64,000 nucleotides of DNA from Candidatus Gastranaerophilales bacterium (GTDB lineage: Bacteria; Cyanobacteriota; Vampirovibrionia; Gastranaerophilales; Gastranaerophilaceae), in NCBI GenBank assembly GCA_905234865.1, contig CAJOJE010000001.1, forward strand, positions 178,021 through 242,020. The letters are read 5' to 3'. Below, in pieces: positions 34,715-35,782 of the stretch (position 1 is its first letter; each line of letters begins with the position of its first letter). The notes beneath the pieces were generated by a model. That model saw only the letters and a program-made list of their open reading frames with translations, ran no database searches and was not told the origin of the DNA. The translations under genes were made by a program, and so were the position numbers.

Positions 34715-34765
34715 CGAGAGATTAAAAGTTAATCAAGAGAGAAAATAAGAAAGAGGAGATAACCG

Positions 34766-35251
34766 ATGGGCTGGGTAACACTGTCGCTCAGAAAAATGGT
34801 TATGACTCAAAAGGTATCGGCATTAGAACACAGATTAACCAAGTTGAGTCAAGAGCAACAGAGTTTAGCCAACAGCTCCGCATACGAGGAGAGAATAATC
34901 GGTATCAACAAAGAAGAAGCTTATAATTCTCTGATGAACGACTACTCGGACAACATCAGCAACATTGCTCAAGGCTTTAATAACGGCGATGCAGATGTTC
35001 AAGACCTTTATGAATATCAAGTTCAACTTCAACAATCAAACTTAGATTACATCTACAACAAAATGATGATTGACTCGATATTCACTCAAGAAGAAAAAAT
35101 CCTTCAAGACAAAGTAAATCAAAAACAAACATACTTATCACTGGAACAAGAACAAATGGAAACACAACTTGAAGCAGCAAGAGCAGAGCTTCAACAGTTA
35201 GACCAAGCGGTAAGTCAAGATATCAAACAAAGTACAATCAGTTTAGTATAA
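34766..35251 (+). CDS. Coiled-coil protein of a lineage-type family, copy 1
   Basis: 161 residues. It opens MGWVTLSLRKMVMTQKVSALEHRL, has no signal peptide or membrane helix, and is predicted almost wholly helical. Gln/Glu-rich heptads dominate (LEQEQMETQLEAARAELQQL near the C-terminus). GAGGAG precedes the ATG. The next gene is a paralog of the same length with the same termini. I know no function; the shape would suit a filament, scaffold or partner-binding protein. Confidence 0.75.
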   Translation: MGWVTLSLRKMVMTQKVSALEHRLTKLSQEQQSLANSSAYEERIIGINKEEAYNSLMNDYSDNISNIAQGFNNGDADVQDLYEYQVQLQQSNLDYIYNKMMIDSIFTQEEKILQDKVNQKQTYLSLEQEQMETQLEAARAELQQLDQAVSQDIKQSTISLV

Positions 35252-35296
35252 CACCAAAAATAACGAGTAACACTAGAAAGAAAGAGGAGAAACACT

Positions 35297-35782
35297 ATGG
35301 GCTGGGCAGCATTATCATTAAGGAAGATGACGCTGAAACAAAGAATCAACAATTTGGAACAAAGACTTGTAAACATAAGTCAAGAGCTCCAATCGATGTA
35401 CGATTCGTCATCATACGCAGAACAAGCATTGGGAGTAGAAAAAAATCAAGCAATGGCAAACTTGCAAAATACTTTTGCAACAAACAATGCAACATTAGCA
35501 AGTACGTACGGCGGAGCAACCGATGCGGCAGGTTTAGCGGAATACAATACGCAATTACAACAACAACAAATGTCATTAATGTACAGTCAAATGATACAAA
35601 ATTCAATGTTCTCTGCAAAAGAACAAGCAATGCAAGAAGCCGTAAACCAAGCAGAAACCCAATTGCAGCTTGAACAGGAACAGGTTGAAACACAACTTGC
35701 CGCAGCAAGAGCAGAATATCAGGCACTCGGTCAAGCAGTATCGCAAGACATTCAACAAGGAGCAATCCACTTAGTTTCATAA
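35297..35782 (+). CDS. Coiled-coil protein of the same family, copy 2
   Basis: 161 residues, starting MGWAALSLRKMTLKQRINNLEQRL and ending LGQAVSQDIQQGAIHLVS. It matches copy 1 at both ends (MGWxxLSLRKM, LEQEQxETQLxAARAE, QAVSQDI), while the middle has diverged to an Ala/Thr/Asn-rich stretch. The leader GAAAGAGGAGA is shared with copy 1, so the duplication included the ribosome site. The 45-base gap has no terminator. Function unknown. Confidence 0.75.
   Translation: MGWAALSLRKMTLKQRINNLEQRLVNISQELQSMYDSSSYAEQALGVEKNQAMANLQNTFATNNATLASTYGGATDAAGLAEYNTQLQQQQMSLMYSQMIQNSMFSAKEQAMQEAVNQAETQLQLEQEQVETQLAAARAEYQALGQAVSQDIQQGAIHLVS

What the first reader, a model, noticed from the sequence alone, without database searches (positions are those of the whole stretch)
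34766..35782. Tandem duplicated coiled-coil family with conserved ends and a diverged middle
Two 161-residue proteins share MGWxxLSLRKM at the start and QETQLxAARAE...QAVSQDI at the end, even the ribosome site, but their middles differ. Conserved termini with a variable centre suggest a fixed docking or secretion signal and a changing payload. No known family fits, so this is a candidate new system.
Basis: partly seen in the sequence, partly recalled or inferred. Interest (0 to 1): 0.55.

Follow-up and report, generated by a model that had tools for sequence, protein, structure and literature searches.

The report
Gut-bacterium proteins tied to secretion machine
Two neighbouring genes in a gut bacterium belong to a large undescribed protein family with fixed ends and changing middles; relatives of the family sit beside the genes of a second flagellum-like export machine, so they may be parts or cargo of that machine.

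Summary
Both 161-aa ORFs are real, 48% identical, with a conserved start and end and a weaker middle. They are an old tandem duplication in a Gastranaerophilales genus (non-photosynthetic relatives of Cyanobacteria). They are two of at least nine members in this genome of an unnamed superfamily: an N-terminal helix, a C-terminal helix, and a middle that makes the whole 108 to 984 aa. No Pfam, NCBIfam or PHROGs family fits.

The superfamily tracks a second, flagellum-derived type III export apparatus (T3SS2) with its own FlhA, FliP, FliQ and FliR. All 26 order genomes without flagellin (of 57 examined) have FlhA2 and FliP2 and lack the flagellar FlhA/FliP. Long members lie 10-11 kb from FlhA2 in five genera and beside the FliP2 run in a sixth. 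In 117 genomes of the class, all 56 with long members have a FliP; none of the 39 without FliP has them, but 22 have FliP without them.

Best reading: the proteins are exported by T3SS2 and the two end helices form an assembly or export module carrying a variable middle (inferred; no secretion data). The window pair itself is not beside T3SS2 genes; its link rests on homology.

The parts
34766..35251 (+). upstream copy (P0001), 161 aa, MGWVTLSLRKM...QAVSQDIKQSTISLV; superfamily member of the short MGW type
   Evidence: profile E 5.4e-58 (it is in that profile); found at E 7.7e-5 by a profile of the long members' ends that contains no MGW-type sequence
35297..35782 (+). downstream copy (P0002), 161 aa, MGWAALSLRKM...QAVSQDIQQGAIHLVS; predicted helical hairpin
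   Evidence: AlphaFold2 helices 2-71 and 77-160, pLDDT 87.3; found at E 2.3e-5 by the long-member end profile
34749..34759 (+). Shine-Dalgarno-like site GAAAGAGGAGA of the upstream copy (ordinary)
   Evidence: sequence
35280..35290 (+). Shine-Dalgarno-like site GAAAGAGGAGA of the downstream copy (ordinary)
   Evidence: sequence

Best explanation
The two proteins are short members of a Gastranaerophilales superfamily that serves a second type III export apparatus (T3SS2), of flagellar descent but kept where flagellin is gone. Most likely they are made in the cytosol without a Sec signal, exported through the FlhA2/FliOPQR gate, and assembled outside by pairing of the N- and C-terminal helices into a coiled-coil core, as the end helices of flagellin, rod and hook proteins do. 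The middle, nearly absent in short members and hundreds of residues in long ones, would be the exposed and varied part. Shown: the family, its end-conserved architecture, the predicted hairpin, the second export gate and its retention without flagellin, genomic linkage of long and very short members to it, and co-occurrence. Inferred: that the MGW-type pair uses T3SS2, that the proteins are exported, and that they assemble.
For: (1) Superfamily: a profile of the two ends of 15 long members finds the window proteins at E 2.3e-5 and 7.7e-5; reversed-ORF decoys give 0 hits at E<=0.01 and 5 at E<=0.1 among 998 unique ORFs; hhalign of short against long family: probability 91.6, E 8.1e-7 over 51 C-terminal columns near the extreme end of both. 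(2) T3SS2: the own genome has a full FlhA (8.8e-215) and no flagellin match; FliE, FliF, FliH and FlhA in one run; FliM/N, FliO, FliP, FliQ and FliR in another. In flagellin-less G020 the FlhA2 run also has FlgB, FlgC, two FlgE/F/G-like proteins and a T3SS ATPase. (3) Two FlhA and two FliP score classes: of 57 order genomes the 26 without flagellin all have FlhA2 and FliP2 and none has FlhA1 or FliP1 (tallied by hand). FlhA2 of the own genome is 77-79% identical to that of four other genera, but 37-39% to the flagellar FlhA of G044, so it does not look decayed. (4) Linkage: long member - p272 - p90 - 108-111 aa member - p204, then FliE - FliF - x350 - FliH - FlhA2, in G014, G015, G018 and G021, and in G030 over two adjoining stretches (p90 not called in G018); a long member next to FliM/N-FliP-FliQ-FliR in G109, G153, G159, one genus. 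6 of 11 genomes have a long member within 15 kb of FlhA2 (chance P 0.004 if ten loci per genome are assumed). (5) Co-occurrence in the class: 56 of 56 long-member genomes have a FliP of either class, 0 of 39 FliP-less genomes have long members. (6) No hydrophobic segment in the pair (max 19-residue hydropathy 0.5 and 0.38; no signal-peptide predictor was run).
Against: The window pair lies away from T3SS2 genes: none of the T3SS2 query proteins matched elsewhere in the 64-kb window or, bar one generic transglycosylase in L059, in the flanks of ten named loci; only long members and the 108-111 aa members were found linked. Homology of short and long types rests on coiled-coil ends, which are prone to false similarity; the N-terminal profile alone does not reach the window proteins and hhalign aligned only the C-terminal part. 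22 of 78 FliP-bearing class genomes (families f10, f11, f12) have no long member by this profile, and G049 and G053 of the order have FlhA2 and FliP2 but no hit of the short-type profile. Linkage and co-occurrence counts are not phylogenetically independent, and the linkage P runs from 8e-6 to 0.004 with the assumed number of loci. In flagellated genomes I showed a duplicated gate, but did not test whether the ring, rod and ATPase genes of the FlhA2 run are also those of the flagellum; in G044 and G024 that run includes rod-like genes. T3SS2 has rod-like proteins, so axial subunits are not wholly missing. No sequence or fold match to a known axial protein: Foldseek best E 0.027, generic coiled coils. 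FlhB2 was not sought. No export data of any kind.
Confidence: 0.43

Rival explanations
1. They are secreted T3SS2 effectors or translocators, not structural subunits; the shared ends are export and chaperone-binding signals.
For: Many copies per genome with diverse middles: 12-13 profile matches, some of them pieces of one protein and only 12 candidates scored, in the 37 other same-family genomes, 7 in the own genome. A glycine/serine-rich protein of about 272 aa (p272) with modest hydrophobic stretches is present in all six mapped blocks.
Against: Conservation of the extreme C-terminus is not needed for T3SS export signals (established knowledge). No enzyme domain reached a cut-off in 14 long members.
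Confidence: 0.2
2. They are cytosolic coiled-coil accessory proteins of T3SS2, such as FliJ/SctO-like stalks or chaperones; the 108-111 aa members fit this best.
For: FliJ/SctO is also an antiparallel helical hairpin (recalled); YscO (4mh6) is among the Foldseek rows (rank 38, E 0.36, TM 0.50). The short members sit in the T3SS2-linked block.
Against: The match is not above unrelated coiled coils. A stalk is expected once per machine, whereas this genome has at least nine members and other genera carry members of 353 to 984 aa.
Confidence: 0.15
3. The MGW-type pair is unrelated to T3SS2: a lineage-specific coiled-coil family whose similarity to the linked long members is coiled-coil convergence.
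For: The pair lies between a small kinase gene and an FAD-oxidoreductase gene here and in all six related genomes with named loci (L051-L056), with no T3SS2 homologue in the stretches read. The N-terminal profile does not reach it.
Against: End-anchored profile hits without decoy hits at E<=0.01, intermediate members matched by both profiles (108 aa: 6e-9 by the short profile, 1.3e-7 by the long-end profile), and an MGW-like member directly beside a long member in L060.
Confidence: 0.2

Closest known systems
Flagellin and other flagellar axial proteins (rod, hook, FlgK/FlgL)
   Same: Conserved N- and C-terminal helices with a variable exposed middle (recalled for the known proteins); members encoded near a flagellar-type export apparatus.
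   Different: No flagellin, rod or hook domain match in the Pfam rows shown for members; 26 order genomes without flagellin all match the short-type profile. One of 26 short members matched the FlgL model NF005980 at 3.2e-5; the other 25 did not at E<=1.
Flagellar basal body / injectisome T3SS (for T3SS2)
   Same: Own genome: FlhA, FliP, FliQ, FliR, FliO, FliE, FliF, FliH and FliM/N homologues; G020 also FliI-type ATPase and rod-like proteins.
   Different: FlhA2 scores below NCBIfam cut-offs for both FlhA (684.8 against 772.1) and SctV (589.6 against 692.25); FliF2 is below those for FliF and SctJ. Rod-domain matches number 2-4 in all 26 flagellin-less order genomes against 6-9 in 28 of 31 flagellated ones.
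FliJ/SctO stalk proteins
   Same: Antiparallel two-helix coiled coil of about 150 aa (recalled; weak YscO row).
   Different: Multi-copy, length 108 to 984 aa, conserved tips at both ends.

Membership tests
Flagellin (PF00669) | Flagellin_N domain | tested here: not met
   No Pfam match of the pair to flagellin; none in the rows shown for 26 short members (first 25 of 50 families) or for 14 long members; own genome has no PF00669 match although 4 control genomes ring
Flagellin (PF00669) | polymerises into an extracellular filament | not testable with these tools
   no experiment available
Flagellar rod/hook proteins (PF00460/PF06429) | Flg_bb_rod or Flg_bbr_C domain | tested here: not met
   absent for the pair and for 14 long members, and from the 25 families shown of 50 for short members; found instead in separate FlgB/C/FlgE-F-G-like proteins of the FlhA2 run of G020
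FliJ/SctO | two-helix coiled-coil hairpin fold | tested here: inconclusive
   hairpin predicted; YscO only a weak row among generic coiled coils
FliJ/SctO | one copy per export apparatus | tested here: not met
   at least nine superfamily members in the own genome
Flagellar FlhA (T3SS2 gate) | score over the NCBIfam FlhA equivalog cut-off | tested here: not met
   684.8 bits against 772.1
Injectisome SctV (T3SS2 gate) | score over the NCBIfam SctV equivalog cut-off | tested here: not met
   589.6 bits against 692.25
Type III export apparatus (superclass) | FlhA, FliP, FliQ and FliR homologues together in one genome | tested here: met
   own genome: PF00771; PF00813, PF01313, PF01311
Type III export apparatus (superclass) | FlhB/SctU switch protein for T3SS2 | not tested

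The most novel reading that the evidence does not exclude
Gastranaerophilales carry a distinct class of type III secretion machine, neither motility flagellum nor known injectisome, kept when flagella are lost. The end-conserved superfamily forms its extracellular fibre or tips and displays a large, fast-changing set of middle domains in the animal gut.
Probability: 0.3. Interest if true: 0.85.

Novelty: new variant of a known kind. Interest (0 to 1): 0.6.

Why it matters
Partial flagellar gene sets in gut relatives of Cyanobacteria have been read as flagella on the way to loss (Di Rienzi 2013, PMC3787301; Soo 2014, PMC4040986; passages seen). Here the retained part includes a second, well-conserved export gate. 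FlhA2 and FliP2 are present in all 26 flagellin-less order genomes examined and beside the flagellar gate in most of the 31 with flagellin (FlhA2 27, FliP2 30), and a multi-copy protein family goes with them. That makes a secretion function in a common, hardly cultured gut lineage directly testable.

Tried and rejected
Recent gene conversion of the ends: rejected, codons of identical residues agree at the chance level. Phage origin: no PHROGs match at E<=0.001 for five members. Known coiled-coil families: only scattered weak hits; none reached a cut-off where one is shown. PADLOC was not searched. Known solved relatives by sequence: the best PDB row is influenza HA2 at E 0.05, taken as a coiled-coil chance match. 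Fold search: no Foldseek row at E<=0.001; VIA rows are mainly SMC, chemoreceptor, SH3BP5 and PI3K coiled coils with Z up to 11.9, uninformative for a helical hairpin; a stalk or axial fold did not stand out there. Low cysteine content (5.2 against 11.4 per 1000 residues) was considered as a sign of export, but T3SS2 machinery proteins are also low (6.6), so I do not use it. The 794-aa weak hit on contig C9 (E 0.06) was not counted as a member. The single-sequence model of a 388-aa long member has a middle under pLDDT 50, so no fold search was made with it. Literature: searches pairing Gastranaerophilales, Melainabacteria, Vampirovibrio or Vampirovibrionia with type III secretion, secretion system, flagell or coiled-coil, and two wider FlhA searches, gave by the titles and abstracts listed (lists capped) no paper on a second T3SS in this group; three papers were seen in passages only. 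Di Rienzi 2013 lists two flhA genes in its tree set without naming a second system in the passages seen. Most subscription papers and preprints are not covered.

Full report
What is there. Two 161-residue ORFs at 34766-35251 and 35297-35782 on the + strand start MGW..LSLRKM and end with ETQL.AARAE...QAVSQDI. They are 48% identical: 54% over the first 35 alignment columns, 33% over columns 36-105, 75% over the last 36 aligned residues. Codons of identical residues agree at 0.51 against 0.54 expected, so the ends are kept by selection on the protein. Orthologues from seven genomes show the same pattern, and a tree puts the upstream and downstream copies in separate groups (98/95 and 99/98 support), so the duplication precedes the split of those seven. 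Of nine genus genomes searched, own included, seven have the pair; G001 and G007 do not. The same kinase and FAD-oxidoreductase genes flank the pair in all six related named loci, and a single copy in the more distant L058.

Host. The window is G000:C1:178021-242020 of a 1.87-Mb, 99.6% complete genome. Of the ten genome-contig loci found with the pair's alignment, nine carry titles naming Gastranaerophilales, Galligastranaerophilus, Melainabacteria or Cyanobacteria MAGs and one is titled only uncultured bacterium.

The family is larger than the pair. A single-protein search finds a third copy in the genome (G000:C19:20292-20825) and matches in 17 of 58 genomes, own included. A profile of 26 members adds weaker hits in the own genome and matches 55 of 58 genomes at E<=0.01. 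Reading the own loci gives ORFs of 432, 330 and 108 aa (C1, about 110.4-114.6 kb), 138 aa (C19), 232 aa (C7) and 286 aa (C18) with the same plan: an MG-initial start, a variable middle and a conserved end. With the pair and the third copy that is nine members. In other genera members reach 984 aa. A profile from the ends of 15 long members, containing no MGW-type sequence, recovers the window proteins at E 2.3e-5 and 7.7e-5; reversed decoys give no hit at E<=0.01 among 998 unique ORFs, and five at E<=0.1. hhalign joins the two types over 51 C-terminal columns (probability 91.6, E 8.1e-7). Against this, the N-terminal profile alone does not reach the window pair; 18 ORFs carry both end hits in place, of which three are short-type members of 157-180 aa with weak N-terminal scores (E 0.18-0.83).

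Fold. AlphaFold2 with 20 rows predicts a two-helix hairpin for the downstream protein, pLDDT 87.3, pTM 0.61. For a 388-aa long member folded from its single sequence, only the end helices (2-46, 313-387) are confident; the middle, under pLDDT 50, has some predicted strands. Fold searches give generic coiled coils.

A second type III export apparatus. The own genome has a full FlhA-family protein (8.8e-215) but no flagellin match. Around it lie FliE, FliF and FliH homologues and a lytic transglycosylase. Elsewhere are FliM/N, FliO, FliP, FliQ and FliR homologues in one run. Over 58 genomes (own included) FlhA falls into two full-length score classes: about 858-891 bits in 29 genomes, and about 668-736 bits in 53, one of these (G008) split over two contigs. 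FliP does so too: 257-277 bits in 27 genomes plus two cut-short copies (G031, G054) that I assigned by their contig, which also carries the flagellar FlhA; and 244 bits or less in 56, G008 again in two pieces (tallied by hand). Flagellin is in 31 of 58. The 26 order genomes without flagellin all have FlhA2 and FliP2 and none has FlhA1 or FliP1; the 31 with flagellin have FlhA1 in 29, FliP1 in 29, FlhA2 in 27 and FliP2 in 30. In flagellated G044 FlhA, FliP, FliQ and FliR are all present twice (L091 and L153). FlhA2 of the own genome is 77-79% identical to that of four other genera but 37-39% to the flagellar FlhA of G044. It scores below the NCBIfam cut-offs for both FlhA and SctV, and phmmer ranks FlhA chains (2.1e-121, 8.6e-116) and a 'low calcium response protein' chain (1.8e-115) close together. 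In flagellin-less G020 the run reads: two FlgE/F/G-like proteins, FlgB, FlgC, transglycosylase, FliE, FliF, a 319-aa unknown, FliH, FlhA2 and a T3SS ATPase. Rod-domain matches number 2-4 in all 26 flagellin-less order genomes (3 in the own) and 6-9 in 28 of 31 flagellated ones. FlhB2 was not looked for genome-wide, and whether flagellated genomes have a second FliF or rod set was not tested.

Link between family and system. In G014, G015, G018 and G021 one stretch holds a long member, p272, p90, a 108-111 aa member and p204, then, about 2-5 kb further on, FliE-FliF-x350-FliH-FlhA2; in G018 p90 was not called. G030 has the same order over two adjoining stretches. In three genomes of another genus (G109, G153, G159) a long member is the direct neighbour of the FliM/N-FliP-FliQ-FliR run, and in G015 another lies 5.6 kb from it. 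Of the 11 genomes for which both positions were at hand, 6 have a long member within 15 kb of FlhA2 (9.9-13.7 kb); the own genome is among the 5 that do not, its block being on another contig. In 117 genomes of the class the long-member profile matches 56, all with FliP; 22 have FliP without it and 39 have neither (the non-matching genomes are partly unlisted, so this takes both calls to have drawn the same 117, as the listed handles suggest). Fisher P is 2e-15 overall and 6e-7 outside the own family, but clades are not independent samples and FliP here is of either class.

How it probably works. The pair has no hydrophobic segment, and its superfamily is tied to an export machine that, in flagellin-less species, has no recognised filament protein. 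Two conserved end helices around a variable middle are the plan of flagellar axial proteins (established knowledge). I therefore favour exported subunits that assemble through their ends. Effectors and cytosolic stalk or chaperone proteins remain possible. For the MGW-type pair the link is by homology only.

What is known. Soo 2014 reports that three of nine Gastranaerophilales genomes had complete flagellar sets and the rest a subset that would not make a flagellum (PMC4040986, passages). [quoted passage not shown] The termite paper restates the debate (PMC5877343, passages). I found no paper describing a second T3SS or this protein family in the searches named under Tried and rejected.

Noticed in passing
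L050:9679-11130 (G000:C3:29678-31129, - strand): An orphan 483-aa protein with a different N-terminus joined to only the cytosolic C-terminal part of FlhA; such FlhA-C-only matches occur in 53 of 58 genomes by my tally. Possibly a soluble competitor or adaptor for export substrates.
   Followed up: partly
L043:8994-9812 and L086, L087, L089, L151, L152: A glycine/serine-rich protein of about 272 aa (p272) follows the long member in all six mapped blocks; no Pfam match for two of them; could be a translocator-like component.
   Followed up: partly
L060:6555-7085, L103:8628-9170, L015:2414-2983: A protein of about 180 aa with EF hands (Pfam match shown for L060) recurs near superfamily members in three genomes.
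   Followed up: partly
L049:14550-15602 and orthologues (x350): A conserved 307-355 aa protein between FliF2 and FliH2, where flagellar operons usually have FliG (recalled), with no Pfam family over a cut-off for the two scanned.
   Followed up: no
L018:232-621 (G030), L068, L074, L077: Another small family, starting MAISNI.ETLL.YTKQK and ending NDF.YGG or similar, about 130 aa, gives weak hits to the long-member end profile (E 2.3e-5 to 0.005) and lies near superfamily members.
   Followed up: no
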